Origin: Blastomyces gilchristii SLH14081
Taxonomy: Eukaryota > Ascomycota > Eurotiomycetes > Onygenales > Ajellomycetaceae
Reading direction: 5' to 3'
DNA length: 64,000 bases
NCBI RefSeq assembly: GCF_000003855.2
Contig: NW_003101641.1
Coordinates: forward strand, 85,978 to 149,977
Position numbers and translations under genes: made by a program
Notes under the pieces: model-generated
Told to the model about the DNA's origin: nothing
What the model saw: the letters and a program-made list of their open reading frames with translations, nothing else
Databases searched by the model: none
Shown here: positions 23,860 through 56,138 of the stretch, piece after piece
Position numbering within the stretch: the stretch's first letter is position 1
Layout of the letters: each line of letters begins with the position of its first letter

Positions 23860-23867
23860 CACACAAG

Positions 23868-24373
23868 TAGACTGACTATGTGACTGTGTCTGAGATCAGA
23901 ATCAGAATATTTGATTATCTTATTATTAATTTAATTAATCTCATTACATAGTTTTAAGATTAAATAGTAGTTTTGTACTATCTTAGCAAAACTTACTATC
24001 TACTCTTATCACATTTTTCAAATAAGATCATGATTTTCACTTCTCAATTTAAATTCATTTTATTACTTTAAATGACTTTAAATCTTATTTAAGTATTATC
24101 AAAAAGTGTTACTTCTTAAAAAATTAAAAATAGTCTTAAAAAAACCTTAAAATGTCTAAAAATAGTATCTCTATATTAAGAATGAAACTAAATGAGATTA
24201 AATGAAATTACTTTCTTATTTTTTCTAAGTCATGATTTTATTTTAAGATCTAATAAATAATCACTTTGCATGTTTTTTTGATGATTAGTTTCAGCAGAAT
24301 TTATATCAAGAAATGCATGAAATCAGATCAAATGAAATTAAATGTGAAATTTATAGTCTCAGCAGTTAGTCTA
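23868..24373 (-). mobile_element. hAT-like miniature element, third copy
   Basis: A 506-bp copy in reverse orientation: TAGACTGAC at the left and TTAGTCTA at the right. The flanking octamers are CACACAAG (23860-23867) and CATATAAC (24374-24381): five identical positions, two C/T differences and one G/C difference, so a decayed 8-bp duplication is plausible. It is more mutated than the copies at 19.6-20.6 kb. Confidence 0.8.
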
Positions 24374-27300: not shown

Positions 27301-29417
27301 TCATTAAATAGAAGAGAATTACTAATAGAGCTTATAAAAGATAATCTAGTAGCTATTATTCTTTCTAGAATTTTTCTCAAACAGTTCAACAGAGATATTA
27401 CTCTATATAACTTAGAAATTGAAGCTTTTCTATTAGATTTTATAAGGATTACTTCAGTAGCTTCTCTTCAGTATTCAGAATAATAGTCATTTTTTAAGAG
27501 ATTGAAAAAGAGCTCAAAATATTCATTCTTCAAGTAGGAATATGTGTTTTGAATAATTAAGTGATTAATTGAATCAGGCTCTGCAGCAGTTTTAATTGAA
27601 CTTGAGAATATTACTGACTCTAGTTCATCACATGTAAGCTCAGATCATTCTCAGTTATTTTCATCAATATATTCATGAAATGATATATTCTTCTCTTCTA
27701 AATGTAATGAGTTTTGAAAGAGAATTCTTATAAAAGCTTGATATTTTTTTTCAAAAGAGTTTGCTGTATACAATTTATTCTGAAATTCATATTCTAAGAT
27801 TGAAAGCTTTGCTACACTTCTTATTTTAGTATAGTTGAAGACTTTAAAAACTTCTTTTTCTTATACTTCTTCAAGAAATTTGTTTCAGTAATCTGTTTTG
27901 ACTCTTTTAATATCTGAAAAATATTCATTTTAAATAGCTTTGAACTCTTTATCAGATATTAAGTTATTCTTTCAATCTCTCTTAACAGTGATTAATTACT
28001 TTCTTTTAGAAGTGATATTCTCATTTCATCAAGATTTGAAATACTCAGAAGACTTTTCTTTGAAATATTTTCTTCAATACTTATTAGAAGAATAGATGTA
28101 ATTAGCTTTACTCTATTCTTAAGTATTTTATTTGAGTTATCTTGACTTTGATTTCAATAGAGCTCACTCTGTCTTTCAGATTTCAGCTGTTTTACTCTTT
28201 CTTTAACTACTTTTCAATCAGCTTTTTCAAAGTTATACTGATTAGAGAGAAGAGGATTTTCACTTCTTTATTTTTCACTCAGTTCAATATTAAATTAAAT
28301 GATCTCATGATCTGATTCTGAGATTTTATTTAAATCAATAAATTAGTTTATAAGTCTTTTTTTAATTAGATTTTATAATATGAAAGTTAAATCTATAATA
28401 GATTTCTGTTTCATATCTTTTTTAAAGAATGTTTATTAATCATACTTGTTAACTAAATCTATTAAATATTTAAAAGTTTATTTAATCAGTTTATCTGTTC
28501 TTACTGCTCTTATACACTCTGAGTTTTATCAGAAATAATGTGTATTAAAGTCTTCTACAATTATAGAGTTTTTTAAGAGAGTTATATTCAAAAATTCTCT
28601 GTTAATTATTCAGATATTATTGTTTTCTTTCAATGACTTTTCATTATAGATATTTATAAGTTAAATAGTATCAAACTCATTCTCTTTATCTATAATATCA
28701 CTCACTAGAATATCAGAGTCAGATATGATATCAAATCTTAAATTAAATTAATATCTTAATCTTTTTCTCTCATAGATCACTACTCTTGATTTTATCTCAG
28801 ATTTTTCAGAAAGAAAGTAGTAATAGCTTGAATGAGAAATGATGTACTTTTACTCAGTATCAAAGTTTGATTCTTGAAAAGAAGTATAAAAGTTAACTTT
28901 TTATTTAAATATAATCTGAAGATAAAGAATAAATACAATTAGAGTTTCTATTTACATTATTTTGAATAAAATGTGATTTTTGAAGAGTTTTTAAACTTTT
29001 TTTATTGTTTTTGTTGTATATTCATACTAGAAGAAAGTAGAGATAGAATAGAATCTAATCACTATTATTAGATAGTAGATTATAACTATTTTAAAAAGTA
29101 GAAATCTCAACTGCTTACATTATATCTAGTTTATTATCAGAGTTATTTCTCAATTCTCTAATCTTAATAGAAGTTTGAGAATTCAAATTCTATTTACACT
29201 CAGCTGAAGAATTGAAGTTTGAAGATCTAGATAGTTGAGAATTTCTTCTTTTTAAGCTTACAGTTGCAGATTTACTAGTTTGACTTTTCTCTTCAGTTTT
29301 AGATTCACTTTGAGCTTCATCTTTTCTTCAGTTCTTCTGAGTTCTTGAAGTAAATACACATTCTTTTGAGTTAGATGCATATTTTTCTTTACAATTAAAG
29401 CACTTAAGCAGAGTCTA

Positions 29418-30673
29418 TTAATATATTTCATCTCTTTTTAAGCATGTTTCACATTTATACTCACTAGTTTTATAATCTCTAGTATAGAATGTGCATTTTA
29501 AGGCTCTGAAATAAGAGATTACAAAGTATTCATATCTTTGACAGTTTGAACACTGTATTTGAGCTTTGAGATTCATTCTTGAGTCTTTGTATTCATAAAC
29601 TCTCATTTTCAAATCTGCTACTCTTACTTCAGAGATTCTTGATTATTCAAGTGTTTTTGTATATATTAGAACAGAGACATTTCTTCTACTCTATCTGAAC
29701 TTAATTAAATTAAGTTATACAGACTCTTTTCTCAGTTGAATAGAATTGTATTCTTCTAATTCATTTTTGAGAAGTAGCATTTCTTTCTCACAGTCAAAGA
29801 TTTCAACTGAAATATTATAAAGAATGATTTTATCTCACTTTTTATCTCTTTTAAATAGAATTATTATGTTTAATAAAGATTCTACTGCTGATTTTCAGAG
29901 ATTCTCATTCTGAATAAGAAATTATGCATTGAATTCAGGTGTTGTGATCAGAATGATGAAGTTTTCAAAGAAGAATGACTCAATTAAAGTTATAACTGAT
30001 TTTTGAACTTTAATATCAGTTATTAACTGAGAAAAGAACTGCTGATTGATTTCATTTCTAATTCTGAAAATAAAATTTAAGTTTAGCTTATTTCTCTGTA
30101 AGATATTCTGATTTGAGACTTTGAGAATAAGTCTTCTATTTCTGAAGATTTGAAGATTTTTCTCTTTTTATATTTTTTCTTCACTCTTCTATCAATAGAA
30201 GTATGAGCAGTATTCTTCTCAGTTTTCTCAGAATTTTGAGCAGATTTTGAGACAGTAGATTTAGAGCTAGCAGATTTAGAGATAGCAGATTCAGCTACTT
30301 GAGTATATGTTTTCTTCTGATTTAAATCAGAAGAAGAAGAAGAAGTAGAAAAGAAAGAAAAGCAAACTGAAGAGTCAGTGATTGTATTAGAAATTTTCAA
30401 AGTTTTTAGAACTGTGTTTGAAATTCCAAGTTTGAACTTAATCACTTTCTATAGTTATCTAGTCTAAGTATGAAGAATTAACAGAACTTCTTTATTCATC
30501 TCACTCAGATACCACTTTTCAAGACTCTTGCTTACTTTTTCAAGGTTCTGTATTTCAAGAACTTGTTATTTCTCTATTTCTTCTTTCTTTCTTCTCTTCA
30601 GAATTTCCATCTCAGGAATAGTATTTGAGAAAGCATCTTTTTTCACATTAACTGAGTGTATTTTTGAACTCAT
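29418..30673 (-). pseudogene. LINE ORF1 (gag-like, zinc-knuckle protein)
   Basis: Translation can be followed from ATG at 30673 (MSSKIHSVNVKKDAF) with a stop about 35 codons in. It then passes a serine-rich stretch (30445-30083) to a cysteine-rich C-terminal segment (29612-29418) with CSNCQRYEYF and spaced C/Y residues. In the knuckles several Cys and His positions are now Tyr (TGC to TAC or CAC to TAC), so the metal sites are destroyed. Such proteins bind the LINE RNA. Confidence 0.75.
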
Positions 30674-30684
30674 TATTCTTACTC

Positions 30685-30830
30685 AATGAAAAGTTGATCA
30701 GACTGATTTAATTGAGATATTTATTAAACTCTTTTGAATTGAAAAGTTGATCAGACTGTTTCAATTAAGAGATTTCTAAGTCTGTTTTCAATTGAAAAGT
30801 TGATCAGACTGTTTCAAAAGAAGAATAAAA
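30685..30830 (-). repeat. 53-bp tandem monomers in the LINE 5' region
   Basis: The motif GAAAAGTTGATCAGACTG starts at 30688, 30741 and 30794, a strict 53-bp period, immediately upstream of the ORF1 start codon. Monomeric 5' repeats act as promoter units in some LINEs (for example mouse L1); that role is inference here. Confidence 0.8.
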
Positions 30831-30860
30831 GACTTTTATATATAAAACACCTGATTTTTT

Positions 30861-31389
30861 TCACACTAGTTCAGTAACTAGATTAGATTTTTGAAGAGAA
30901 TCTAATAAACTAAAATTGATTTTTGAGATAAATTAATAAGATCTTTATAATCTCTTTCTTGAAATACAGTGAGAAAAAGTATGATATCAATTGATAATAA
31001 ATCAGATAATATGACAGTTTTTGAGAGAAAAACTGATAAAAAATAAATTAATTTTTTACAGAGAAATTGATTAAACTATTCAATTTTATTCTAAATTATT
31101 CAGTTCTTCTCACACAACAAGTATACAACTCAAATCAGTTAATAAAAAGTGTAAAAAAGAATTAAGTATTAATAAAACTCTTCAGTCACTGAAAAAGTAA
31201 TTCTTACTTAAAAGAATGTGAAATTATAACAGAAAATAACTCTGTTTTTAATTCTTTGTAAGAATATTATATAAAACTCAGAGAAAAACATCTTACTTTT
31301 TCAAGAGATGTAAAAAACTATTTCTAAGATCTATTTTTTTTGTATTAACTGCTGTAGAAGAATGAGATAGAAACTGCTAAGATATATAC
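30861..31389. other. AT-rich spacer, no feature seen
   Basis: Hypermutated sequence between the LINE 5' region and the next repeat. It may include the true 5' end of the LINE. I see no open frame or terminal motif. Confidence 0.4.
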
Positions 31390-32372
31390 TACTGTATATT
31401 CTCTATCAAGACTTTTTCTCTTCAGAGTCTTGATATTATAGAGAATATAAGTCTGTTTCTATATAATAATATAAATATTATCAGCAGGATATAGAGGAAC
31501 TGATTATTTATATCTTAAAATAGAAGACTTTATCAATGATTATATTAATATAGAGTTAATTCTTAATTTCAATAGAAATCTAGTATTGCTATTCTCAATC
31601 TCTTGCAGAATGTATTAAATATTGAGATATTAAAACTAGATTTAATATATCTCACTGTGCAGGGATTAAAGACTCAGTCAGATCTTGAGATATAAGTTAC
31701 TGAATTTATAGTTATTGATGTGCTGTTAACTTGTTCTGTTAACTTATTATTCACTGATTATGTATTGAATACTGTTACTGAGATATCTTTTTGTAATATT
31801 CTGCTAGAAATGAGTCAGATTGAGAGGAGTAGTATGAGAGTGAGACTTGATGTTAATGTCTAAATACACTGAAGACAGACTGCAGAGATTGCACATCAGA
31901 AGTATCTGTTAATTATGTGCTTAATATTATTACTGAGATATCTTTTTGTATTTTTCTGCTGAGAATGAGCCAGATTGAGAAAGATAATATGAGAGTGAGA
32001 CTTAGTGTTGATGTTTTGAAACATCAAAGATGAACAGGATTTTCACAGAGATTACTTCTCAGATATCTTCACAATTACAGATCAGAGATCTTTCAAAATC
32101 AAGAAGATTGATGCATATGACTAGGTCTCTTCACCTTACAATTTGTATGGCAATTTGGCCTAGAGTTGTGATGTGATAGGAGAGAACAGGGGATAATCTC
32201 ACACAGGAGTTTTGAACAATGTCTGGTTCATGTTTGGCTGGATAACTCCACCACCACACGGGGTATGCGGTCGGCGATGGGGTCAAAAATGCTTGTATGA
32301 TCGAGGGCTTTTCGATGGACTATCGGCGGGTTCTTATTCGAAAAATCGAGCGAGTTCGTGGTGAAGCGGTTG
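31390..32372 (+). repeat. Repeat family X, copy 1 (983 bp; possible LTR)
   Basis: Matches 61077-62038 in inverted orientation along its whole length, and 39841-39990 over its distal part. The left end has a hairpin (TCTCTATCAAGACT near 31400 with AGTCTTGATATTATAGAGA near 31430). The middle holds two copies of a unit of about 155 bp (from about 31775 and 31930). The right 260 bp keep CpG and GG. It is followed at once by Gypsy pol sequence, so it may be a 5' LTR, but gag is missing and I cannot prove it. Confidence 0.7.
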
Positions 32373-39990: not shown

Positions 39991-40417
39991 TCAAAGATCT
40001 TGATCTTAGTTTTTCTTGCATTTTTAAACTTCTTTTCAATCTGTCATTGAGCAGCTCTTGCAGTCTTATTCATATCTTTTTACTGTTTTACTGTTTAATA
40101 AGTTGTCTCTCACTTTATTCTCTTTTGCATTATATCTGCTTTTTTCTGTTTTTTAAAAATAGTGTATTGCAACTTAGCATTCTATTTACAAGCCTGCTCA
40201 TTTTTTTTAACAGATTCAAAAGTTGTTATTTTTTCATAAATAATCTGTATCTTTGTCAGTAAAAAGAACTGTGTCAATGATGAATTTAAGAAATCTAGTA
40301 ACTACATTACTCTGTCACACTTGTAACATTTTCTCTCTTGATTAAAAGCTTACTGTAACTGTCTATTATCTACTAAAAGAATCTCTTTATGAAGAACAAG
40401 ATTTTCCTCTGTATTAA
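39991..40417. other. AT-rich spacer with a pyrimidine-rich plus strand
   Basis: An open plus-strand frame (39801-40262) codes for a Leu/Ser/Phe-rich peptide, but this follows from the pyrimidine-rich strand; the reverse reads Lys-rich. I recognise no domain. Confidence 0.4.
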
Positions 40418-40781
40418 ACTATTTTCTCTTTTATAAGATTTTATTTCAATGAGTTTGAAAGCTTTCACTATCACAAATAGTTCAGTATCAAAGACTTCAG
40501 ATTCACAGTCTAAATTTTAGAAATCTGAGATAAAATTGATATTATCTTCAGTATAAGCAATGTCTGTATCTAATCTATTTAAATTCTCATTTTTTGAGCT
40601 ATCTGAATAAATCAGAATAGAGTCTTTTATATTAATTGTAGAAATTCTCTTTAAATACTGTTCATATTCTTTCTCTTTAGATAGTTCACTTATTTGCAAG
40701 TCTATAAGAGATTCAAGCTTTTCTCTTCAGAGAGATAACTTCTCATGATCAACTTTTTCAACATTTAAAGAAGAAAATTAA
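40418..40781 (-). mobile_element. LINE RNase H fragment fused to the tRNA-headed module
   Basis: A 364-bp piece of the Tad-like LINE, covering RNase H (ILIYSDSSKNENLNR and AYTEDNINFISDF on the minus strand, 40699-40517). It ends abruptly at 40781, where the module begins. The equivalent LINE position is near 26165 in the first LINE and 51330 in the third. The LINE part 3' of RNase H is missing here, presumably lost later. Confidence 0.82.
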
Positions 40782-41531
40782 CTATGAGTGCTAGTCACTC
40801 ACAGAATGCATCTTAAGCTAATTACATTTAACCCTCTATAATTAACTGATCACTGTGTTCATTCTCTCAGGCCAGTCACTAATTTCCAGAGGCATTAGTT
40901 AGTGACTGTCATCACTCACTTAATGATGTACACACCAAGCTTTCAGTTGCTGATCTCAGTCTCATTAGATGCTCATAGGCCTATCAATCAGCTGTTATGA
41001 CCTCATCTCATATTAGAGACTAATCATAGACTTGATGACTGCAGTTCTCTCTGTCAGTATTAGAACTTAACAGTGAGCTTACAGACTCTAGTCTATCAGA
41101 GTGCTCTGTCTAGAGTCTAGATACATGTCTAGATCTGCTAGTTAAGTGATTTTCAAAATCATTCTCTGTATTTTAAGAGAGAGCTAGGCTCTGATAATGA
41201 CCCTAGTTAGAGACTCACTTACATAGTGTATAATCACTACATTAGACTTGACTCTATATTGTTAGAACCTTGACAGGTGCACAGTAGAATAGTGAGACAT
41301 TGACATTTCATACTGACTCTGATAAGTGTTCACAGAATCTTGCTTAACTAGTAACTTGGCTTGCAGTAGAGAGTTCTACTCCACACCAAGCCTTACTAAT
41401 TAGACTCAGCCTCTATTACATAGAGGCTTTCATGGGGAAGAAGTAGCAGATGCCAGCGTGGGATTTGAACCCACGCACCTCTAATGTGTGCGGCCTTGAT
41501 TACCAGTCTTATCAACTGAGCCACACTGGCA
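40782..41531 (-). mobile_element. tRNA-headed 750-bp module, copy 1
   Basis: A 750-bp sequence nearly colinear with 55378-56125. On the minus strand it starts with a tRNA-like head at 41531 and ends at 40782 with the reverse complement of CTATGAG. It is joined to LINE RNase H sequence. It differs from the other copy mainly by C-to-T and G-to-A changes. There is no open frame of note. It looks like the DNA copy of a structured non-coding RNA. Confidence 0.82.
41451..41531 (-). ncRNA. tRNA-like head of the module, copy 1
   Basis: 81 nt. The acceptor-like arms TGCCAGT/TGCCAGC and GCTGGCA pair; the T arm is GTGGG-TTCAAAT-CCCAC. A box A-like stretch (TGGCTCAGTTGA) and a perfect box B (GGTTCAAATCC) are present. 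A 17-nt segment that can fold as a class II variable arm (GCAC...GTGC) precedes the T arm. I cannot draw a canonical 5-bp anticodon stem with a 7-nt loop, so this is a tRNA-derived promoter/head and not a working tRNA gene. Confidence 0.7.
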
Positions 41532-41659
41532 GATCAGCAGCAGTAAATGAAGATGTATATTTGAAATATAACTGCTTCTCTCACACAGGATTAAATAGCT
41601 GTTAAAAAACTCTTTTTAATACATATAAATTTCATTTCAGTTCTCATCTATTCATGCAG

Positions 41660-42065
41660 TTATTATTCTTATTATTATTATTATTATTTAATTATAGATA
41701 TATGCAGTTAAAGACTATAACATTTATCTGAAAATTTTTAATTTGCAGAATTTTTCTAGTATTTATAAAGTTAATCATTATAGATTTATCAATTTCAGAT
41801 ATGTAAAATCAGAAAATTTCAGTTCAGAATACAGAAATCTTTTACAAATTACAGTAATTTTAACATGTTCTGATACTTTTGAAATCATTTAGAAAATAAC
41901 ATTATAAAAGCAAAGAAATAAAGTATTAAAAATAAATATATTAAATAAGTAGATAGAAAGAAAAAGAAAAGAAAATGTAAAAAGAGAGAATTTACAAAAT
42001 AAAATCTCTACAGTTTATATTTTAAACTATATACATATTTTAACACATTATATAATTAACTGCTG
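41660..42065 (-). mobile_element. LINE 3'-end fragment (5'-truncated insertion)
   Basis: Starts with the same (ATT)n tail as the other LINEs, then the shared 3' UTR (ATTATAGATATATGCAGT...) up to the end of ORF2. The match stops at about 42065, so the copy is 5' truncated to about 400 bp, typical of LINE insertions. It is strongly mutated. Confidence 0.8.
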
Positions 42066-42638
42066 TCTTTGTTCTCTCACATCTATTTCAGAGATTATTA
42101 TTTTCTTTAAAGAGCTGTCACTCAGCTATCTACTATAACTAGCTTATTTATAAGTGAGATTCTTACTAAGAATAATATCAGAGCTATTCAATTCTAGTTA
42201 AATCTTTATTCTTTCAACTGTTAATCTTATTTTTTTAATCTATTAATTGACTGTCACAGTCTTGCTTGTATTAATCATCTTTTAAAAGTACTTAAACTTT
42301 GTCTTATTTAAATTCTTGCTAGATTTAAGATATTCTGATTAAATAATTTTTAAATGTTAATTCTCTAAAGATGAGTGTTTAAAGTGAGAGAGAGAATGAA
42401 ATCTGATCAGTTAAACTTAACAATAATTCATTATTATATAAGTACTTTAAACTTCATTTACTCTAGTACTGATTTAACTTGAAGCATTTGAAAGACTGTT
42501 AACTTTAAAATCAGTGAAAATTAACATCTGAAAATCTCTGAAGTGAATATTTTAAGCTTGATATAATTCACTATATATATCTGAGAGTCTCTGATACTGT
42601 TTTATAGCTTACAGTGGAATGCTGTAATTAAAATGACT
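42066..42638. other. AT-rich sequence, nothing recognised
   Basis: Hypermutated, with no open frame or terminal repeat. It abuts the assembly gap. Confidence 0.4.
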
Positions 42639-42815
42639 NNNNNNNNNNNNNNNNNNNNNNNNNNNNNNNNNNNNNNNNNNNNNNNNNNNNNNNNNNNNNN
42701 NNNNNNNNNNNNNNNNNNNNNNNNNNNNNNNNNNNNNNNNNNNNNNNNNNNNNNNNNNNNNNNNNNNNNNNNNNNNNNNNNNNNNNNNNNNNNNNNNNNN
42801 NNNNNNNNNNNNNNN
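42639..42815. other. Assembly gap
   Basis: 177 undetermined bases (N). Open frames reported across it have no meaning. Confidence 0.99.
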
Positions 42816-43740
42816 GAAGTAATTATTTAATATGAAAAGTCTATTATTCATACTCTGTTTTTATTTTTATAAAATGTTCAAAAATCTTCTTTAATTATAT
42901 TAATTTATATTTATTCTTATTTATTTATTTTCTGAAATAATAAAATAAATCTGATTCTTTTCACTATTAAAATTCTTCAATCAAGTATTTTATATATCTC
43001 TCAATTTCTCTTAATATATAAAAGTAGATGTGAGTGAAGTTTTATCTGTATAAATTAAAATAAGTAATATTATAAATTCTCAACTGTTATTTTAACTTAT
43101 ATTTATTATACAGTCTAACTTGAGTGAAATATTCAATATAATATATTTATAAGTGTAAATGAGTTTTAATAAAAATTCTTTTTTTTTAAAATTATAAATA
43201 TTTATAAATTTAATATTATATTAAATAATTTTTATCTGTAATTATACATTAATTAATAAAAAGAAAAATATCAGTAGAAAAAAGAAAATTATTATAAAAT
43301 TAAAATAATACTTGAAATATATAAAGTTGTCTACGATTTTGTATTTTTAATTGATATTTCAAAGATAAAATAACTTAATTATAATTTTATAATACTGACA
43401 GAATTATAATACTCAGTTAATTTTAATAAATACTTTTAAAATCTCAATAATAAAATTATAAAGAATTTGAGATATACAAGAGAAACTGTAATCTATTAAT
43501 TAACTGATATAAAAAAAAGCTGTTTTTCTCACAAATCTGTGAAATTTTTACAGTGAATAAAGCTTGTTTCTTTTTTTCATATTTGAATATTTTTATAATA
43601 CTGTAATAATGTATATTAACTAATTCTATATTTTTTTAACAGTCTCAGTGTAATTAGAAATCAATTGTATGTTTAAATTATCAATTACTGCTTATAGAAC
43701 TGCTTTATAGTACATGTTACAAGTATTTGAAAATGAATAA

Positions 43741-43886
43741 AAAAATGAAGATTGAGCGGGTGTTAATAAGCAGGTGTTGAGTGATTAATCACGTTACTAA
43801 ATAGGTTGAATAACACGTGACTAAGGTAACGTAATCAATCACTCAACGCCTGCTTACACTTAATACTCACTCAATTTTCAATTTTG
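43741..43886. mobile_element. Small palindromic foldback element (about 145 bp), unmutated
   Basis: Arms of about 55 bp (43745-43797 and 43826-43886) flank a 28-bp loop. Shared arm features include TAAGCAGG, GTTGAGTGATT and ACGTTAC; the arms differ by a few bases and a 3-bp indel. CpG sites remain (ACGTTAC, CACGTG, AACGCC), unlike the surroundings, so insertion was late or the element is too short to be mutated. It looks like a MITE. Its superfamily is unknown and no clear target duplication is visible. Confidence 0.72.
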
Positions 43887-43942
43887 CATTTAGTTTTAAA
43901 CACTTATATCATGCATTATGAAGCCGTTATATAAGTGATAAT

Positions 43943-44448
43943 TAGACTGACTGTGTAACTGTGTCTAAGATCAGAATCAGAATATTTAATAGTCTCAGTA
44001 TCAATTTAATTAATCTCATTACACAGTATTAAGATTAGATAGTAGTCTTATACTATTTTAGTAAGACTTACTATCTACTCTTATTACATTTTTAAAATAA
44101 GATCATGATTTTCACTTCTTAATTTAAATTCATTTTATTGCTTTAAATGACTTTAAATCTCATTTAAGTATTATCAAAAATTGTTACTTTTTCAAAAATT
44201 AAAAATAGTCTAAAAAAAACTTTAAAATGTCTTAAAATAGTAACTTTATATCAAGAATAAGATTAAATGAAATTAAATAAGATCACTTTCTTATTTTTTC
44301 TAAGTTATAGCTTTATTTTGAGATCTGATAAATAGTTACTTTGCTTATTTTTTTAATAATTAATCTCAGCAAGATTCACATCAAGAAATGTGTGAGATCA
44401 GACTAAATGAAATTAAACATGAAATTTATAATTCTGTCAGTCAGTCTA
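43943..44448 (-). mobile_element. hAT-like miniature element, fourth copy
   Basis: A 506-bp reverse-orientation copy: TAGACTGACTG at the left, CAGTCAGTCTA at the right. Flanking octamers GTGATAAT (43935-43942) and GTGACAAT (44449-44456) differ by one C/T, a decayed 8-bp duplication. Confidence 0.87.
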
Positions 44449-44699
44449 GTGACAATTAATGATTTAAATATACAATTGATTTTTAATTAAACTGAGACTG
44501 TTAAAAAATATGAAATTAGTTAATATACATTATCACAGTGTTATAAAAATATTCAATTATTAAGAAAAAAAACAAGCTTTACTTACTGTAAAAATCTTAT
44601 AGATATGTAAGAAAAACAGCTTCTTTTTCATATCAATTAATTGATAGATTAGGATTTCTCTTATCTATCTCAAATTCTTCATAATTTTATTGTTGAGAT

Positions 44700-45205
44700 T
44701 AGACTGGCCGCTGGGATTATGAATTTCATATTTAGTCTCATTTGATCTGATCTCATACATTTCTTGGTTTAAATCCCGCTGAGACTAGTCATTAAAAAAA
44801 CATGCAAAGTGACTATATATCAGATCTTAAAATGGAATCATAACTTTAAAAAAATGAGAAAGTGATCTTATTTAATCTCATTTAGTTCTATTCTTGACAT
44901 AAAGTTACTATTTTTAGACATTTTAAGGTTTTTTTTAGACTATTTTTAATTTTTTAAAAAGTAACGCTTTTTGATAACACTCAAATGAGATTTAAAGTCA
45001 TTTAAAGCAATAAAAATAATTTAAATTGAGAAGTGAAAATCATGATTTCATTTGGAAAATGTGATAAGAGTAGATAGTAAGTCTCACTGAGACAGTCTGA
45101 GACTACTATCTAATGTTAAAACCGTGTAATGAGATCAGTCGAATTGATAATAAGACTATCAAAAAATCTGGTCCTGGTCTCAGATATGATCACACGGTCA
45201 GTCTA
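44700..45205 (+). mobile_element. hAT-like miniature element, fifth copy
   Basis: A 506-bp forward copy with TAGACTGGCCGC and CACACGGTCAGTCTA ends. Flanking octamers GTTGAGAT (44692-44699) and GTTAAGAT (45206-45213) differ by one G/A. It splits the right arm of the long inverted repeat, so it is younger than that repeat. Confidence 0.9.
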
Positions 45206-45415
45206 GTTAAGATTTTAACAGTATTTATTAAAATTAACTGAGTGTTATAATTCTGTCAATATTATAAAAATATAATTAAGTTATTTTATCTTTGAAATAT
45301 CAATTAGAAATACAAGATTGTAGATAATTTAATATATTTTAAGCATTATTTTAATTTTATAATAAATTTCTTTCTTCTATTAATTTTTTCTTTCTTATTA
45401 ATTAAATTTATCTTA

Positions 45416-45779
45416 ATGAAGATGATTTGTAGAGTAGTGAGTTATATTATTGAGATCTAGCTATTGTATAGTCTTTTATATATGATAAGTGTTTACTGAG
45501 TAATCTGTGATGAGTGTTCACTGAGTGATCAGTGATCACCTTGCTTATACAGAAGCAGTCAGTCTGTAAAGAAAATTCAACATCTTTTTTAATTACAGCT
45601 TCACTGAGTAGATATTTACAACTCAGCAGAGCAGTTCTATGACTAGAGAAAGAATATTATATATAAAAATAGTAGTATCTTCTGTCAAAGATTTTGTGAA
45701 AGACTAACAAGAATTGAAGAATTAAAAAAAATTAGCATAGAGATATTATTCTGATTAGACCTTATATATATCAGAATAC
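45416..45779. other. AT-rich spacer with short repeated GAGTGATC motifs
   Basis: A short patch at about 45490-45535 repeats TGAGT(A/G)ATC-type motifs reminiscent of the foldback arm near 43775, so it may hold a decayed relative. Nothing else is seen. Confidence 0.4.
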
Positions 45780-47080
45780 TCACAGAGCTTTACAGGCTAT
45801 AAGTACTTGAATTCTCATATTAATCAGAGTATTTTTATGAACTTTGAAGATTGACATCTTCATAAGAGTATCTGTGATTATGTAAGTAGTATTCATCTGT
45901 TCAATCTTGACAATGCTTAATACAGCAGTATCACAGATATAATAATGTTTTATATTAATATAATATACATTACAAATGATCTTGTCACTGTTTACTATAA
46001 TAATCATATCATTGTTATCAATATATAGAGAGACAGTGAAGTTAGAAAGTAGAAATTCAAGTTCAATTAGTAGTTCACACAGTCAGTTTATAGTTTTTAA
46101 GCTCTCACTGATAAATATATACTCAGCTTCTGTAATACTTAGACCTACAATTGTCTGTTTAGCTGATTTTCACACAATTAAGCTGTTAGCTAGATGAATG
46201 AGAAGACTAAATATAAATTTACAGTCATCAGTATCACCTGCTTAATCAGAATTTAGTGTAGACTTTAAAATTAAAATCTTTTATATCAGTAGCATATTGA
46301 ATGAAGCAGTTTATAGTACTGTGAATATAATGAAAGAGCCTTTGAACTGCAGCTTAGCAAGCTTGTATTAACTTGCTTAATCAGCATGCAATCTTTGGAG
46401 TTACAAAGAAAATATTAAGATGAGTATAAATGATAATATATTGAAGAGATTTAACAGTCTGCTAATATTTAAACTTATCAAAGAGTTTAAGATTGAATTG
46501 TGAATTAAATACAGATTTCATAAGAGTTATTACAGCTTTGAAGTCTGTCATTTCATACTTATTTAATATTGATTTAATATAGATGAATTGTGAGAGCTTA
46601 ATATCACTTTTATTCTTTTCAATTTTCATACTTAAGTAGTGATTTATGAGACTCAGATTCTTTACAGTGAATTAATCACTAATTTATATAAATATCTGTT
46701 CAAGAGTATTCACATCTGAGCTTATAAGTTTAATATTATTAATATATAAAGTGAGATAGATTTGAGAATCTCTTTTAAATTAGAGACTCTTATTATAATA
46801 AAAGAACTTAAAATTAATATCTTTTAGATAATTCATAAAAAGATTGAATCACAGATAGAATGCCTGTTTTAAGCTATAGACAGATTGTAGAAGTAAACAG
46901 ATATAGTCAGTATTATTACTAAAACTGATCAGCTATCTCATATAGAGTTACTCATTGAGTGAGAGATCTGTGTTTAGAAACACTGTAATGAAGTCAACTT
47001 AACAGACATTTCAGTTCTTACTCACTACAACTGTAAGTATTGCATAGATGACAGAGACAGAAATAACAGATATATATGTA
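45780..47080 (-). mobile_element. Second Ty1/Copia relic, minus strand
   Basis: Distal RT can be followed at about 46900-46720 on the minus strand, with FYELSK and a series of Phe/Tyr/Lys blocks of the Copia LLQSVYGLKQ...W region across frame shifts. RNase H follows at about 46260-45980: SAKQTIVGLSITEAEYIFISE, then LYIDNNDMI. The pattern KQxTVALSSTEAEYxAxSE is diagnostic of Copia RNase H. Integrase and gag are not evident. The right edge abuts a GC-rich island at 47085. Confidence 0.78.
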
Positions 47081-47215
47081 GTTCGGAAGAACGTACGACC
47101 GCCGGATAATAACGCGGCCGCTTCCGAACACGCTTACGAATGTAAAGAGGCCCTAGCGGCCACTAATTAATTTAGATAACATATATAAGAAGGCGGCGTA
47201 CGCCTGTAATTGTAC
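47081..47215. repeat. GC-rich unmutated island, possible short LTR
   Basis: About 135 bp starting TGTAGTTCGG and ending GTAATTGTACA, with more than ten CpG in the midst of CpG-free sequence. The TG...CA ends would suit a short LTR, lying where the 5' LTR of the minus-strand Copia relic might be. No matching second copy or target duplication was found. Confidence 0.4.
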
Positions 47216-49847
47216 ACTGACTTAAACAACCTTTGAATCACATCTGATAGCATGTCTAAAAACCAGTGAGAAGCACAGGCTTCTTCAGAGTGTGATAATT
47301 CTGCCTACAAAGCAATTCATAGTTATCACGCCAGTGTGGTTCTAAAACACCTCAAAAAAAAGATAGCATATGAAGAAGCAGTGAGCAGAAGAGCATTCAA
47401 TTGATGCTGTTTTACTTATTGAGAAAAAACTTCACACTCAGGCAAATATCACATATGCAAACAGATGAGATGTGAGAAAAAGAGAATGAGAGTAATGAAT
47501 CAGATTCAAAGAAGTTCACTATCTACTCAGAAGAATAAAAGAGAGATAGTCATTATTAGACTTATATAATAATAATAGAAATTATATAATGATATAATAA
47601 TAGACACTGTACAATCAATGAAAAATCACTGAAATGAATATCTTCTCTAGTTAATAAAAATAACACTCTTCTCTGCTATCTGAACTGAAAGATATGCAGA
47701 ATCTCTCAGAGAGTTTACTCAAAGTTGTAAGAAAAACAGCTGAGATCACTGAATCAAAATTGCAGCTTTATATATATATGAGAATTCTAAACAAGATCAA
47801 GGCCTTGCATATACAATGACAGACTGAGATAGAAGCTAAGTAACAATTGATATTCACTACAGATCAAGTATTTACTATGAAGAGCTTCACTGACACAATT
47901 ATCATTATCAATAAGAATAGGGAAAACCAGGTCATAGATCTGCAGTAGAAGATTAAACACTTATATAGATAGATAACTGCACTGAATCTGAAGATTTTAT
48001 CATGATTATTCATAATCTCTTCAGAAGTATACATATCATCTGAGACTGCTACATATGATGAGAATTTAAGTATGAAATATATCAAGTCAGATGATCTACT
48101 AAAGCTATTAAGCTTTAATAACAACTAAAAAAATAATACTGCAATCAGCTGACTAAGTTAGATGTGATTATATTATTAGATTAAATATAAACTCATAGAC
48201 AGACAGTTAACAGAATTTTAATAAGTGTTAAAATCTGTTACATTTCTATATGAAAAAGCAAAGTAATTATAAATAATGAGTGAAAAGATAAATCTCATAG
48301 ATCTGAAGCAGTATTCATTCTTATAAATATGGAATAAGTTTTCAAATGAATCTTACACAAGTTTAAGAAAGTGAATATATAAAATAAGTATTATAAATAC
48401 TTCACTGAGTATAGATAAGTAGATAATCTTATATTATACTTTATATACTTCAGCTTACACTATCTTATATTGAATAAAGAGCTTTTAACATCTTTCTATT
48501 TATAGATCTTCATTCATAATCTTATATCTGAGTTAAGAGTGAAATGAAAATACTTAATCTCATAATCAGATACAGTGAGAGAAGCATATAATATTCTCTT
48601 TATATAGAAATAGATAAGTCAGCTGTAATAGAAAATACTGTAATCAAGTATATCTTAGCATAATCAGACTTCTATAATACAAGTTATACACTTAAATACA
48701 ATGAATTTAGATTTGAATATCATTATTAAAGCACTGAATTCTCTGAAAAAGAAATCCTCTAAGTGAAAATCTTGATATTATAAGTATCAAGCTTGCTTCA
48801 ACTGCAGATATTAAAATCATGATATAAAAGATTACACACAGTGTACATAGTTAAGAGAAATAAGAGAGTTAAAAAACTAGCAGAATCAGTAAGCTCAGAG
48901 ACACTCACTGATATTCTATGAAAAGTCTTCAAAGTTAAAGAGATACTCACATTAGATAATTCTCTGAATTCTATAAATATTAAGAGAAAGCAGACTTCTG
49001 AATAAGATGCAGATAAGAATGAAGAAGCAGATACTTATCTCAATATTTTAAGATCTAAAATATTAATGTATAGAGAATACTTGAGTAAGAATTAAGAGAT
49101 GACTGTAAAAGTATTAACAGATACAGAAGCTTCTATATAATATATTAATAATTCTATAATCTGAAGACTGAAAGAGGTCTATTAAGTGAAGAATTCTCCA
49201 TATATAAGATTGTCTGATAATTAATATTTAATATTATCTGTAAGAGTAAGAGTTTTCTTATACTTTGAAGAATAATCTTACTAATTTGAGTGTGAGAGCT
49301 GAAGAACATGAAATACAACCTTATTCTCAGACTTAATTGATTTCAGAGATTCAATCTGCAGATTCAATGATATACATATTATATATGATTAATTAATAGA
49401 AAGAAAACAGTTCATATAATTCTATTAACTGATATGAGAAGAACATTTCATGTCTCTGATATAGAAGAGTTAAATCTGCTTACATATTAATAAGTAAAGA
49501 GAACAATTCACAAGACCTTATTCAAAAGTATTCTGTATATCATACAGCATCTGAAAGTGAAGAAAACTAAGATAAAGAATATACAGAAGAATAAGCATAT
49601 AAAGAAACTTCTGAAGAAGTATGAAAAAATCTTTTAAACAGATCTTTCATCAGAATTGTCACTAGAATGAGAATTCATATATGAGATTAATATAAGAGAT
49701 ATGAAATCAGTCAATCAAAATGCATACTCTCTGTTACAAACATATCTTGAGAAACAGAAGTATCAGATCACAGACCTTCTAGAACATAGTCTTATATAAC
49801 TCTTATTAAGCACATGAGATTTCTCAGTTCTATTTATGAAAAAGACA

Positions 49848-49860
49848 GAAGAGAAGTAAT
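49848..49860 (+). repeat. Target duplication of the LINE chimera, left
   Basis: GAAGAGAAGTAAT, identical to 56126-56138. It lies within the Gypsy RT coding region and marks the 3' side of the minus-strand LINE. Confidence 0.9.
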
Positions 49861-50240
49861 TATTATATTATTATTATTCTTCAATTATAGATGTATGCAG
49901 TCAGAGACTATGATATCTACCTGAGAACCTTTAGTTCTCAGGGTTTTTCCTTATATCTATAGAGTCAACTATTATACACTTATCAATTTCAGATATGCAA
50001 AATCAGAAAATTCCAGCCCAGAATACAAAAACTGTTTACAAATTGCAGTATTTCAACACCTATTAATACTTTGAAACCATTTGAAAACATTATGACAAAG
50101 GAAAAGAGAACATAGTCCTAAAGATAGACACATTAAATAGATAGATAGAAAAGAACAGAAAGAAACAAGTACAGTAAAGAAAGATTATAAAAAAATAAAA
50201 TTATTAAAAGATAGTGTATAGCTGTTTTAACAGACTATAT

Positions 50241-50570
50241 CTAATCAATTTCCATCTCTTCATATTCAGATACTTCTGAGTTAAGCCATTTTCTTATAGC
50301 TGCTTGAGTTTCTGATAGAAAGTCTATTAAGTATTTAAGTTCTGTCTCAGTTGAGAATAAGAACCTCATATTTAATTGATTTAAATCATACTTCTTCTTT
50401 AATCTAACTCTGAGACTATTGTATAATACACAATGCATTACAATATACTCAGGATTCTCATTTGTATTACAGAATGAGCACTCTGTTGAATCAAATCTAT
50501 CATCAAATCTTTGTATATAGAATTTGAAATAATCATGTCCTAGTTTTAGCTGAATTATGAATGAGAACAT
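50241..50570 (-). pseudogene. LINE ORF2 C-terminal zinc motif
   Basis: A 109-codon open stretch ending in the natural terminus of ORF2. It contains LKLGHDYFKFYIQRF, then C-x2-C-x7-E-x4-H-C (CSFCNTNENPEYIVMHC), a conserved tail in Tad1/I-type LINEs (zf-RVT family). The C/H ligands are intact here. The function in the family is RNA or DNA binding during integration. Confidence 0.82.
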
Positions 50571-51863
50571 TTTCTTTTTGCATTTAATTGAACAAGATTT
50601 TCACTTTGATTTTGTCTCAAATCTTGAATAATGTATACTCTTCTTTTGTTTCTGTCAGCTTTCATTTCACTTGTTTAAATAAGATTCTTTTATCTTTCTC
50701 TTTATGAAAGATCAGGACACTGTTTTTTGAACAGATCTGCTTAATTCTGAACCCTTTTTTGCAGCTGAATCAGCCAATTCATTGCCATGAATATTCATAT
50801 GAGCAGGAACCCAATGCAGGTGAATTATCAGTTTAGATATTCTTCTCTTTTGAATTTTCAAAACAGAGTTTAAAATCAGGTCAAGATTCATTTGATCATT
50901 ATAAATCTGACTATTTCTAAGTCTTTTTAAAGCAGCTTGACTATCAGAGAATATTCATGCCTCTTTCAAACTATTTCCTCTTTTATGAGATTTTATTTCA
51001 ATGAGTTTGAAAGCTTTCACTATTACAAATAGTTCAGCATCAAAGACTTCACATTCACAGCCTAGATTTCAGAAATCTGAGATAAAATTGATATTATCTT
51101 CAGTATAAGCAATGCCTGCATTTAATCTATTCAAATTCTCATTTTTTGAGTCATCTGAGTAAATCAGAATAGAGTCTTTTATATTGATTGTAGAGATCTT
51201 CTTCAAATACTGTTCATATTCTCTCTCTTTAGATAGTTCACTTATTTGTAAGTCTATGAGAGATTTCAGCTTTTCTCTTCAGAGAGATATCTTCTCATGA
51301 TTAATTTTCTCAACATTTAATGAAGAAAATTGATTCTTAATAAGTGAACATAGTCTATACAGTTGAGAGGGCATTTTCTTTAAAGCATTATTCTCATTTC
51401 AATCAAGAAATCTATTTCAATTCAGTTCATTTCCTGAGTTAACTGATGAAAATGAAGAAGAGACTCTTTCTCTGATTATATGATTTGAGCTCATCTTTAT
51501 GACTCTCAGAGCATAGTTTATACAGGTCTTTTCAAATTGAATAGCAGGAGATGGAATTGAGACTTCAATTTCCATTGCTTTAATAGAAGATGATTTGAAT
51601 GCTCTCAGAATTCTTCTCAAAGCTCTGTTTTATAGACTTTGAAACAGTTCAGTGAAGTTATCTTGATTGTTTTATTAAACTTGAACTTCATAATCAGCTA
51701 CTGAGATAATACAGGCTATGTACAACTGTCTCATAGCCTGAAAAGATAAACCTCTCTCAGTATTTGATAGTCTGATTATACTATTCAGTAGTCTCTCTGC
51801 CTTGATGATTCTTTGTTGAATATGATATTTAAAATTCAACTTAGAGTTTAATCATACTTCTAG

Positions 51864-52697
51864 TCATTTGACATTCAAACTGGGTTTAATCTCTTTATTC
51901 AGAAGAGTTAGACTTAGTTCTTTCTCATTAAATCTGAGAAAAAAGTGAATTAACTCAGTTTTATTCATATTAAATTGAATTAGATTGATATCTGCTCTAA
52001 CAAAGATTTTCTTTACTGCTTTCTCAATCACTTCTAAATTCTCTTTGATTGTCTTTGAACTGTAGAGAAGACTAATATCATCTACATAACTTAGAGATCT
52101 CACTATTTTCATCTCTCTATTCTTGAATAAATATGCAGTGTATATTGCAAATAAAACAGATGAGATTGAAGATTCTTATAATACTTCTATTTTTATCTCA
52201 GTTTTATCTTGTTTTCTTTCATCAAAGAATAGTTATATAATTCTTTTAGACATGAAATAATTAACTCATTTTATTAGAGAAAGTAACAGTTTTAACATCT
52301 TCAAAGTTTGAATCATCTTAGACTTTGAAACATGATTAAATGCATCTTTTATATCAATAAAAACTGCAGTTGAGACCAGGTCTTCATACTTTGCTACTTG
52401 AATATCATGAAGAACTGAGAGAATAGTGTTAATTACAGAACATTGTTTTCTATCTTTCATTTATTCATTAAATAGAAGAGAATTACTAATAGAGCTTATA
52501 AAAGATAATCTAGTAGCTATTATCTTTTCTAGAACTTTTTTTAAATAGTTTAACAGAGATATTACTCTATATAACTTAGAAACTGAAGCTTTTCTATTAG
52601 ATTTTACAAGGATTACTTCAGTAGCTTCTCTCCAGCATTCAGAATGATAATCATTTCTTAAGAGATTGAAAAAGAGCTTAAAATATTCATTCTTCAA
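51864..52697 (-). pseudogene. LINE reverse transcriptase core
   Basis: Three consecutive open stretches in nearly one frame: 52697-52461 (WREATEVILVKSNRKASVS, the RT motif 0-2 region), 52460-52266 (VFIDIKDAFNHVSKSKMI, motif A) and 52112-51864 (SYVDDISLL, motif C). The catalytic aspartates are retained. Stops separate the stretches. It corresponds to about 27.5-26.7 kb in the first LINE. Confidence 0.85.
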
Positions 52698-54577
52698 GTA
52701 GAAATATGTGTTTTGAATAATTTAATGATTAATTGAATCAGGCCCTGCAGCAGTTTTAATTGAACTTAAGAATATTACTAACTCTAGTTCATCACCTGTA
52801 AGCTCAGGTTATTCTCAGTTATTTTCATCAATAGATTTATGAAATGACATATTCTTCTCTTCTAAATGTGATGAGTTTTGAAAGAGAATTCTCATAAAAG
52901 CTTGATATTTTTCCTCAAAAGAGTTTGCTGTATACAATTCATTCTGAAATTCATATTCTAAGATTGAAAGCTTTGCTACACTTCTTGTTTTAGTATAGTT
53001 GAAGACTTTAAAAACCTCTTTTTCTTATACTTCTTCAAGAAATTTGTTCTAGCAATCTGTTTTGACTTTTTTAATATCTGAAAAATATTCATTTTGAATA
53101 GCTTTGAACTCTTCATTAGATATTAAGTTATTCTTTCACTCTCTCTTAGCAGTGACTAGTTACTTTCTTTTAGAAGTGATATTCTCATTTCATCAAGATT
53201 TGAAATACTCAGAAGACTTTTTCTTTGAAATATTTTCTTTAATACTTGTTAGAAGAATAGATGTAATCAGCTTTGCTCTATTCTCAAGTATTTCATTTGA
53301 GATATCTTGACTTTGATTTCAATAAAGCTCACTCTGTCTTTCAGATTTCAGCTGTTTTACTCTTTCTTCAACTGCTTTTCAATCAGCTCTTTCAAAGTTA
53401 TACTAATTCAAGAGAAGAGGATTTTCACTTCTTTGTTTTTCACTCAGTTCAATATCAAATTGAATGATCTCATGACCTGATTCTGAGGTTTCATTTGAAT
53501 TAACAAACCAGTTTATAAGTCTCTTTTCAATTAGATTTTGTGATATGAAAGTTAGATCTATAATAGATTTCTGTTTCATATCTTTTCTAAAGAATGTTTG
53601 TTGATCAGACTTGTTAACTAAATCTATTGAATACTTAAAAGTTCATTCAATCAGTTTATCTGCTCTTACTGCTCTTATACACTCTGAGTTTTATCAGAGA
53701 TAATGTGCATTGAAGTCTTCTGCAATTATAGAGTTTTTTAAGAGAGTTATATTCAAAAATCCTCTATCAATTATTCAGATATTGTTGTTTTCTTTCAATG
53801 ACTTTTCATTATAGATATTTATAAGTTGAATAGTATTAAACTCATTCTCTTTATCTATAATATCACTCACTAGAATATCAGAGTCAGATATGATATCAAA
53901 TCTCAAATTAAATTAATATCTTGATCTTTTTCTCTCATAGATCACTACTCTTGATTTTATCTCAGATTTTTCAGAGAGAAAGTAGTAATAGCTTGAATAA
54001 GAAATGATATACTTTTACTCAGTATCAAAGTTTGATTCTTGAAGAAGTACAAAGTCAACTTTTTATTCAAATACAATCTGAAGATAAGAATAAATATAAT
54101 TTGAGTTTCTATTCACATTATTTTGAATAAATGTGATTTTTGAAGAGTTTTTAAACTTTTTTTATTCTTTTTGTTATATATTCATACTAAGAGAGAGTAG
54201 AGATAGAGTAGAATCTAATTTCTATCATCAGATAGTAGATTATAACTATTTTGAAAAGTAGAAATCTCAACTGCTTGCATTATATCTAGTTTATTATCAG
54301 AGTCATTTCTCAATTCTCTAATCTTAACAGAAGTTTAAGAATTCAAATTCTATTTACACTTAGCTAAAGAGTTGAAGTTTGAAGATCTAGATAGTTGAGA
54401 ATTTCTTCTTTTTAAGCTTATAGTTGTAGATTTACTAGCTTGACTTTTCTCTTCAGTTTTAGATTCACTTTGAGCTTCATCTTTTCTTCAGTTCTTCTGA
54501 GTTCTTGAAGTAAATACACATTCTTTTGAGCTAGATGCATGTTTTTCTTTGCAATTGAAGTACTTAAGCAGAGTATA

Positions 54578-54772
54578 TTAACATATTTCATCTCTTTTTA
54601 AGCATGTTTTATAATTATACTCACTAGTTTTATAATCTCTAGCATAGAATGCATATTTTGAGTCTCTGAAATAAGAGATTGTAAAGTGTTCATATCTTTG
54701 ACAGTTTAAACACTGTGTTTGAGCTTTGAGATTCATTCTTGAGTCTTTGTATTCATGAACTCTCATTTTCAA
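54578..54772 (-). pseudogene. LINE ORF1 zinc-knuckle segment
   Basis: A 64-codon open stretch with CLNCQRYEHF, DYKTSEYNY and CLKRDEIC: a series of CCHC-type knuckles in which some Cys/His are replaced by Tyr. One knuckle keeps its histidine (EHF), which is mutated to Tyr in the first LINE, so this copy is less decayed. Confidence 0.78.
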
Positions 54773-55377
54773 ATCTGCTACTCTTACTTTAGAGATTCTT
54801 GATTATTTAAATGTTTTTGTATATACTAGAATAGAGACATTTCTTCTACTCTATCTGAACTTAATTGAATTAAGTCATACAGGCTCTTTTCTCAGTTGAA
54901 TAGAATTGTATTCTTTCAATTCATTTTTAAGAAATAGCATTTCTTTCTCACAGTCAAAGATTTCAACTGAAATATTATGAAGAATGAATTTATCTCACTT
55001 TTCATCTCTCTCAGATAGAATTGTTGTATTTAACAGAGATTCTACTGCTGACTTTCAGAGATTCTCATTCTGAATAAGAAATTCTGCACTGAATTCAGGC
55101 ATTGTGATCAGAATGATGAAGTTTTCAAAGAAGAATAACTCAATTGAAGCTATAACTGGTTTTTGAACTTTAATATCAGTTATTAACTGAGAAAAGAACT
55201 GCTGATTAATTTCATTTCTAATTCTGAAAATGAGGTTTGAGTTTAGCTTATTTCTCTGCAATATGTCCTGATTTGAGACTTTGAGAATAAGTCTTCTATT
55301 TCTGAAGATTTGAAGATTTTTCTCTTTTTGCATTTTTTTCTCCACTCTTCTATTAATAGAAGTATGAGCAGTATTCT

Positions 55378-56125
55378 CTACGGGCGCTAGCCACCGCAGG
55401 ATGCACCTTAAGCTAATTACATTTAACCCCCTATAATTAACCGACCACCGCGTCCGTCTCTCGGGCCAGCCACTAATTTCCAGGGGTGTTAGTTAGTGGC
55501 TGTCACCGCTCACTTGGTGGTGTACACACTAAGCTTCTGATTGCTGATCTCAGCCTCATTAGCTGCTCATAGGCCTATCAATCAGTCATCATGGCCTTGC
55601 CTCATGTTAGGGACTAATCATAGGCTTGATGACTGCAGTTCTTCCTGCCAGTATTAGGGCTTAGCAGTGAGCTTACAGACTCTAGTCTATCAGAGTGCTC
55701 TGTCTAGGGCCTAGATATGTATCTAGACCTGCTAGTCAGATGGTTTTCAAAATCATTCTCTGTATTTGAGAGAGAGCTAGGCTCTGATGACAGCCCTAGT
55801 TAGAGACTCACTTAAGTAGTGTATAATCACTACATTAGGCTTGGCTCTACATTGTTAGAACCTTGACAGGTGCACAGTAGAATAGTGAGACATTGACATC
55901 TCATACCAGCCCTGGTGAGTGTTCGCAGGATCTTGCTTAACTAGTGGCTTGGCTTGCAGTAGGGAGTTCTAGCCCGCACCAAGCCTTACTAATTAGGCTC
56001 AGCTCCTATTACATGAGGGCTTTCATGGGTAAGAAGTGGCAGGTGCCAGCGATGAGATTTGAACCCACGCACCTCTAATGTGTGCGGCCTTGGTTACCAG
56101 TCTTACCAACTGGGCCACGCTGGCA
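55378..56125 (-). mobile_element. tRNA-headed 750-bp module, copy 2
   Basis: 748 bp, retaining many CpG and GG (for example at 55378-55400 and 55440-55470). On the minus strand it begins at 56125 with the tRNA-like head, which directly abuts the target duplication, and ends at 55378 (reverse complement of CTACGGG), joined to LINE ORF1. A TTTT run on the minus strand (about 55753-55750) could stop RNA polymerase III about 370 nt after the head. There is no protein-coding frame. Module and LINE share one target duplication and so inserted together. Confidence 0.87.
56044..56125 (-). ncRNA. tRNA-like head of the module, copy 2
   Basis: 82 nt with TGCCAGC at the 5' end pairing with GCTGGCA. Box A TGGCCCAGTTGG (56117-56106) is a good match; box B GGTTCAAATCT (56065-56055) has one change from copy 1. 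It is followed by CC, reminiscent of an encoded CCA. The long spacer before the T arm suggests descent from a class II tRNA (Leu or Ser), but the anticodon arm is not canonical. Confidence 0.72.
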
Positions 56126-56138
56126 GAAGAGAAGTAAT
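56126..56138 (+). repeat. Target duplication of the LINE chimera, right
   Basis: GAAGAGAAGTAAT, identical to 49848-49860; the Gypsy RT frame resumes after it. Confidence 0.9.

What the first reader, a model, noticed from the sequence alone, without database searches (positions are those of the whole stretch)
40418..56138. A tRNA-headed 750-nt RNA module fused to a LINE at two different LINE positions
Seen: the module at 55378-56125 (748 bp) and at 40782-41531 (750 bp) has the same two ends in both copies. One end is the tRNA-like head; the other begins CTAYGRG. It is joined to LINE ORF1 in one case (55377, equivalent to about 30217 of the first LINE) and to RNase H in the other (40781, equivalent to about 26165). 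A fixed module with variable LINE junctions is what is expected if the LINE reverse transcriptase leaves its own RNA part-way and jumps to the 3' end of another RNA, copying it to its 5' end. Known parallels are U6-L1 chimeras and the WEIRD/MGL chimera (MINE) of Magnaporthe. Inference: a non-coding RNA of about 750 nt with a tRNA-like 5' end exists or existed in this fungus and is a preferred switch acceptor.
Basis: partly seen in the sequence, partly recalled or inferred. Interest (0 to 1): 0.9.

Follow-up and report, generated by a model that had tools for sequence, protein, structure and literature searches.

The report
tRNA-headed RNA riding on cut LINEs
In a fungal genome, a 747-base non-coding sequence that begins like a tRNA is fused, in each of 41 copies read, to the 3' part of a LINE retrotransposon, at 37 different LINE positions; the two RNAs were likely joined where the LINE RNA breaks at AAA|UC, which would let this RNA spread without the LINE-like tail that ordinary SINEs carry.

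Summary
The module (window 55378-56124 and 40782-41530, minus strand) starts at base 1 of a tRNA-like head and ends ...GTAG. In 41 copies read it joins LINE directly, at 37 LINE positions. In 26 of 27 testable copies one 12-17 bp target duplication encloses module plus LINE, so they entered together. Six LINE 5' ends are fixed and different, so the module is not the LINE 5' UTR. New here: (1) the LINE breakpoint has a sharp motif, AAA|TC, whose A side is absent from the chimera; it marks the LINE template (a cut or stop), not microhomology. (2) Different LINE subfamilies broke at the same base. (3) A related tRNA-headed SINE has a fixed LINE tail at 73 or more of 132 ends; the module has one at 2 of 101. 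(4) The modules fall into few lineages, each with many junctions. It works like the WEIRD-LINE chimeras (MINE) of Magnaporthe, with another motif. Whether joining is RNA ligation or reverse-transcriptase jumping is open; I lean to cut-and-ligate. No LINE-free source copy was found.

The parts
55378..56124 (-). module copy A (747 nt; 5' end at 56124, 3' end ...GTAG at 55378)
56044..56124 (-). tRNA-like head of copy A
   Evidence: Rfam tRNA 27.8 bits, just under the cutoff of 29; 17 of 20 other copies (L002-L021) pass the cutoff
49861..55377 (-). 5'-truncated LINE fused to copy A (LINE position 2157 to the 3' tail)
56125..56138 (-). target-site duplication, copy at the module 5' end
49847..49860 (-). 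target-site duplication, copy after the LINE 3' tail
40782..41530 (-). module copy B, more C>T/G>A mutated
40407..40781 (-). LINE piece fused to copy B (LINE 6204 to 6577; the rest of the LINE is missing)
24689..32372 (-). LINE1 of the window, judged full length, with the fixed LINE 5' end at 32372 and no module
   Evidence: domains of a related copy: endonuclease and reverse transcriptase, RNase H
41660..42638 (-). old copy of the sibling SINE (SINE2) with LINE tail, cut by an N run

Best explanation
The module is a tRNA-headed non-coding sequence that sits at the 5' end of 5'-cut LINE copies and entered the genome together with them as single insertions; its RNA is likely made by RNA polymerase III and likely becomes joined, end to end, to LINE RNA that has been cut at AAA|UC. 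Shown from sequence: fixed module ends; 37 LINE junctions in 41 copies; one target-site duplication around module plus LINE; the AAA|TC motif at the LINE breakpoint; few module lineages with many junctions each, and more than one LINE subfamily as partner. Inferred: the Pol III transcript; an RNA endonuclease that cuts LINE RNA between A and U; [quoted passage not shown] then ordinary target-primed reverse transcription from the LINE tail through the LINE piece and the module to its 5' end. Each chimeric RNA would thus act like a SINE made afresh, with a LINE tail of any length. That the joining is ligation rather than a jump of the reverse transcriptase is a lean, not a result.
For: LINE follows the last module base directly in 41 of 41 copies read, at 37 distinct positions. 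A 12-17 bp exact duplication flanks module plus LINE in 26 of 27 testable copies; control windows reach 9 bp in 5 of 1080. LINE motif at 38 sites: A 33, 25, 26 at -3, -2, -1; T 30 and C 21 at +1, +2; flat elsewhere from -30 to +20; random positions never reach this in 5000 sets. TC follows 58 of 101 module ends genome-wide. At 37 of 40 joints the first two bases equal those of another LINE copy, the other 3 differ by substitution. Same-base pairs L042/L046 and L009/L045 have LINE parts of different subfamilies and near-equal modules. tRNA-like head in 17 of 20 copies. For ligation: reports that human U6/LINE-1 chimeras arise by ligation before retrotransposition (statement in PMC8857657; passages of PMC13174262).
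Against: No RNA data. Neither a nuclease, the module's 3'-end chemistry nor a fusion RNA has been seen. The Magnaporthe authors explain MINE by template switching. The AAA|TC motif could mark a stop of the reverse transcriptase; the sites are only slightly more unpaired than matched sites (0.56 against 0.46, p 0.048). Three module-free LINE 5' cuts seen lack the motif, too few to tell, but they do not support a general LINE cut. No LINE-free source gene was found. The sample is the best-scoring hits, not random; L017 has no duplication and L034 shows only 25 bp of LINE.
Confidence: 0.5

Rival explanations
1. Template switching: the LINE reverse transcriptase starts at the LINE 3' end, leaves its RNA at AAA|UC, at a stop or at a broken end, and goes on from the 3' end of the module RNA to its 5' end.
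For: Same anatomy as above. Accepted model for MINE; template jumping is a known activity of R2 and LINE-1 enzymes in vitro (abstract of PMC8857657; passages of PMC10830420). TC at +1/+2 could be microhomology if the module RNA really ends GUAGUC.
Against: The -3 to -1 A's are not copied and lie outside any microhomology. The R2 enzyme needs added bases to jump and adds mostly A's (PMC8857657 section); extra T's are not seen at the 8 joints that start with C or A.
Confidence: 0.4
2. The module is an ordinary 5' UTR of a LINE subfamily, and variable junctions are later internal deletions.
For: Module always upstream of LINE in the same orientation in the 41 copies read.
Against: 37 different deletion ends always meeting the same module base; a motif at the LINE side; six LINE 5' ends with another fixed start; L007 joins inside the LINE's own 5' region at position 1454.
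Confidence: 0.02
3. The module is a classical SINE whose body simply has a LINE-derived tail.
For: tRNA head; L032 and L048 share one short LINE tail without transversions and have different target duplications.
Against: That tail start is present at 2 of 101 module ends, against 73 of 132 for the sibling SINE2.
Confidence: 0.05
4. Spliceosomal trans-splicing of the module onto LINE RNA.
For: Fixed donor end and many partner sites with a short consensus.
Against: A 3' splice site needs AG before the cut; -1 is G in 1 of 38 sites.
Confidence: 0.02

Closest known systems
MINE: WEIRD-MGL chimeric retroelements of Magnaporthe grisea (PMC2104539; parts 1 to 3 of 5 read)
   Same: Full-length non-coding RNA at the 5' side, 5'-truncated LINE at the 3' side, same orientation, one target duplication around both, varying LINE length, a short consensus at the LINE breakpoint, several sites used twice, and no solo copy found.
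   Different: Here the RNA has a tRNA-like head; the motif is AAA|UC instead of GCC|A/U and covers bases on both sides; a sibling SINE sharing a 3' domain exists; many more copies (101 ends against 31 MINE reported). Sequence relation to WEIRD could not be tested. WEIRD RNA is shown to be expressed; the module is not tested.
U6 snRNA/LINE-1 and other RNA/LINE-1 chimeras of mammals (PMC13174262 abstract, two sections and passages; PMC4476161 passages)
   Same: Complete Pol III-type RNA fused in sense to 5'-truncated LINE, with target duplications; ligation or template switching discussed as mechanisms.
   Different: There the RNA is a host housekeeping RNA; here it is a repeat family. tRNA/LINE-1 chimeras of that paper carry mostly half tRNAs in antisense; here the whole 747-nt RNA is in sense.
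tRNA-derived SINEs with a LINE tail
   Same: tRNA-like head, unrelated body, mobilised by a LINE; the sibling SINE2 here is one.
   Different: The module has no tail of its own; its LINE part differs from copy to copy.

Membership tests
LINE-made chimeric retroelements (class of MINE and U6-L1) | 5' part is a complete copy of a non-LINE RNA | tested here: met
   41 of 41 copies read are complete, but they were chosen as best-scoring hits; a further copy in L004 lacks the first 114 nt and is also joined to LINE
LINE-made chimeric retroelements (class of MINE and U6-L1) | 3' part is a 5'-truncated LINE in the same orientation, joined directly | tested here: met
   41 of 41; L034 with 25 bp of LINE only
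LINE-made chimeric retroelements (class of MINE and U6-L1) | target-site duplication around the whole chimera | tested here: met
   26 of 27 testable; 14 of 41 could not be tested
MINE of Magnaporthe | breakpoint consensus GCC|A/U in the LINE | tested here: not met
   AAA|TC instead
MINE of Magnaporthe | 5' part is WEIRD RNA | not testable with these tools
   no WEIRD sequence at hand
tRNA-derived SINE | tRNA-like head | tested here: met
   17 of 20 copies reach the Rfam tRNA cutoff; copy A just misses it
tRNA-derived SINE | fixed 3' tail shared with its LINE | tested here: not met
   2 of 101 ends
tRNA-derived SINE | transcribed by RNA polymerase III | not testable with these tools
   no RNA data; A and B box recognised from memory of their consensus only
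U6/LINE-1-type RNA ligation | fusion RNA exists before reverse transcription | not testable with these tools
   no RNA data

The most novel reading that the evidence does not exclude
A site-specific RNA cut-and-join reaction in a fungus: LINE RNA is cut at AAA|UC and sealed to the 3' end of a tRNA-headed RNA, so that a selfish RNA with no LINE tail of its own spreads only as one half of joined RNAs, a way of life beside that of ordinary SINEs.
Probability: 0.4. Interest if true: 0.85.

Novelty: new variant of a known kind. Interest (0 to 1): 0.62.

Why it matters
It is a second fungal case, now with a tRNA-headed RNA, of a non-coding RNA that multiplies by being joined to LINEs, and it brings an internal control: a related RNA in the same genome that moves as a normal tailed SINE. 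The sharp AAA|UC motif makes an open question directly testable: are such chimeras made by reverse-transcriptase jumping or by RNA cutting and ligation. The two copies with one shared short LINE tail suggest how a new SINE could be born from such a chimera.

Tried and rejected
Rejected: LINE 5' UTR, spliceosomal trans-splicing, plain tailed SINE. A Pol III terminator right after the module was my own idea on seeing T5 in L032 and L048. It failed: other LINE copies carry the same T's at that place, and of the 101 ends only these two have T5 within 6 bases. Pure microhomology does not explain the A side of the motif. Rfam gave no ribozyme in copy A; a salivarius-1 match of 25.5 bits lies under its cutoff of 50 and is taken as chance. 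Folding the whole module gave z -3.2 from only 20 shuffles; not pursued. Only three module-free LINE 5' cuts could be looked at and none has AAA|TC (L048, L033, L036). Organism: among the 120 listed hits of a host gene the named ones are Aspergillus, and for a LINE piece Emmonsia and Pyrenophora; no species is claimed. Print: searches listed no fungal case like this besides Magnaporthe; I saw listings and abstract starts, and most subscription papers are not held. The study of Moldovan et al. 2019 on ligation was seen only as a reference and as cited by others.

Full report
Observation. The two window copies align at 87% over 746 bp. The element reads as RNA on the minus strand. In 41 copies the base before GCCAGCG varies while GCC is invariant, so the module starts at base 1 of the tRNA-like acceptor stem; it ends ...GTAG. 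A search of the window's own genome (74.8 Mb, 75 contigs) scored 40 of 243 candidates, all 40 nearly full length; a search with copy B scored 40 of 264. A pattern for the last 15 bases, tolerant of C>T and G>A changes, has 101 matches against 13 for the reversed pattern; one of the 100 listed looks like chance.

Sample. I read 41 copies: the 40 hits (L001-L021 and L031-L049; L022-L030 are shorter versions of L031-L039 and were dropped) and window copy B. L001 is window copy A. This favours complete, little-mutated copies.

Junctions. LINE sequence follows the last module base directly in all 41. Counted on LINE1 from its 5' end (window 32372), junctions run from 1454 to 7371, 37 distinct in 41; the LINE parts have a median of about 1.8 kb on that scale. 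L034 shows only 25 bp of LINE before unrelated sequence, a weak case. Exact duplications of 12-17 bp lie before the module and after the LINE (TAA)n tail in 26 of 27 testable copies; L017 is the exception; 14 copies could not be tested because the LINE 3' end is outside the DNA held or lost. Control windows: 5 of 1080 reach 9 bp. A few duplications may include a base or two of the TAA tail. So module and LINE came in together. A further, 5'-incomplete module in L004 (module 115 onward) also ends GTAG|TC and is followed by LINE.

Not a 5' UTR. Six LINE 5' ends with unrelated flanks share one start (CAACCGC with C>T-type variants; the L009 match starts one base later), among them LINE1 of the window. 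A related LINE copy has endonuclease and reverse transcriptase domains and RNase H.

The breakpoint motif. For 40 of 41 copies another LINE copy spans the breakpoint (L034 is missing). Using 38 of them (L048 and copy B dropped as repeats of a site), the LINE reads A 33/38 at -3, A 25/38 at -2, A 26/38 at -1, T 30/38 at +1 and C 21/38 at +2, and is flat at the other positions from -30 to +20. At 3716 TC sites inside the LINE parts, -3 is A in 1376. The summed information over the five positions, a stretch chosen after looking, is 3.01; 5000 random position sets reach at most 0.97. In the whole genome 58 of 101 module ends are followed by TC. The A side is not in the chimera, so it is a mark of the LINE RNA. 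At 37 of 40 joints the first two LINE bases equal those of the compared LINE copy; L021, L033 and copy B differ there by substitution, so no joint clearly holds extra bases.

Independent events. Four pairs share a junction base. In L042/L046 (3397) the LINE parts differ by 44 transversions in the first 1400 bp, the modules by 2; in L009/L045 (7290) by 8 in 389, the modules by 5; in L047 and copy B (6204) by 7 in 372, the modules by 4; in L032/L048 (7354) by 0 in 321, the modules by 1. The first two, and likely the third, are separate events; L032/L048 may be one chimera that moved again. Four module columns have transversions shared by two or more copies; three of them split the 41 copies into groups of 21, 10, 8 and 2, with 21, 9, 8 and 2 distinct junctions. 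So a few lineages each gave many joinings. Over all pairs compared, transversions per site average 0.0039 in modules and 0.0088 in LINE parts.

A sibling SINE. L032:5500-6584 and L037:9274-8189 carry a tRNA-headed element with a body of about 750 bp and about 330 bp of LINE tail; the L032 copy has its own target duplication. The old copy at window 41660-42638 belongs here. Its last 79 bp of body are 76-78% identical to module 656-731; nothing else in the bodies matches beyond a weak 40-bp stretch. At least 73 of 132 genomic ends have the same tail start, against 2 of 101 for the module. I suggest that the shared 3' domain recruits both RNAs to the LINE particle; this is inference.

Mechanism. 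Shown: the anatomy above. Inferred: transcription by Pol III from the tRNA-like head (A and B boxes recognised from memory; 17 of 20 copies pass the Rfam tRNA cutoff); a cut or stop at AAA|UC; joining; target-primed insertion. For the joining I lean to RNA ligation (0.5) over template jumping (0.4), because the motif lies on both sides of the break, the joints are clean, and U6/LINE-1 chimeras are reported to form by ligation (PMC8857657; PMC13174262; the cited study itself was not read). Against: no RNA evidence; the Magnaporthe authors favour switching; three module-free LINE cuts lack the motif; junction sites are only slightly more unpaired than matched sites.

Comparison. The closest known system is MINE of Magnaporthe. 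As far as anatomy tells it works alike, but its motif is GCC|A/U, and homology to WEIRD could not be tested. I file the case as a new variant of LINE-made chimeric retroelements.

Limits. No LINE-free module was found among 41 copies read; about 60 of the 101 pattern-matched ends could not be read. LINE 3' ends gave 2137 first-look candidates against 243-264 for the module, so perhaps one LINE copy in ten carries it; these are unscored counts.

Noticed in passing
L032:5500-6584; L037:9274-8189 (minus); window 41660-42638 (minus): A second tRNA-headed, about 1.1-kb SINE with a LINE tail, sharing a 79-bp 3' domain with the module.
   Followed up: partly
   Followed up: no
L004:2986-3612: A further module copy lacking its first 114 nt, ending GTAG|TC and followed by LINE.
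   Followed up: partly
window 19619-20611, 23865-24373, 43249-45405: An approximately 490-510 bp repeat in tandem and inverted copies, 83-94% alike.
   Followed up: no
window 30687-30817: A 78-bp tandem repeat in the LINE 5' region.
   Followed up: no
window 22980-23471 (minus): Relic of a Copia-type reverse transcriptase (RVT_2 match just under its cutoff).
   Followed up: no
window 1209-2643 (minus): Host gene resembling cystathionine beta-synthase in a G+C-richer stretch.
   Followed up: no
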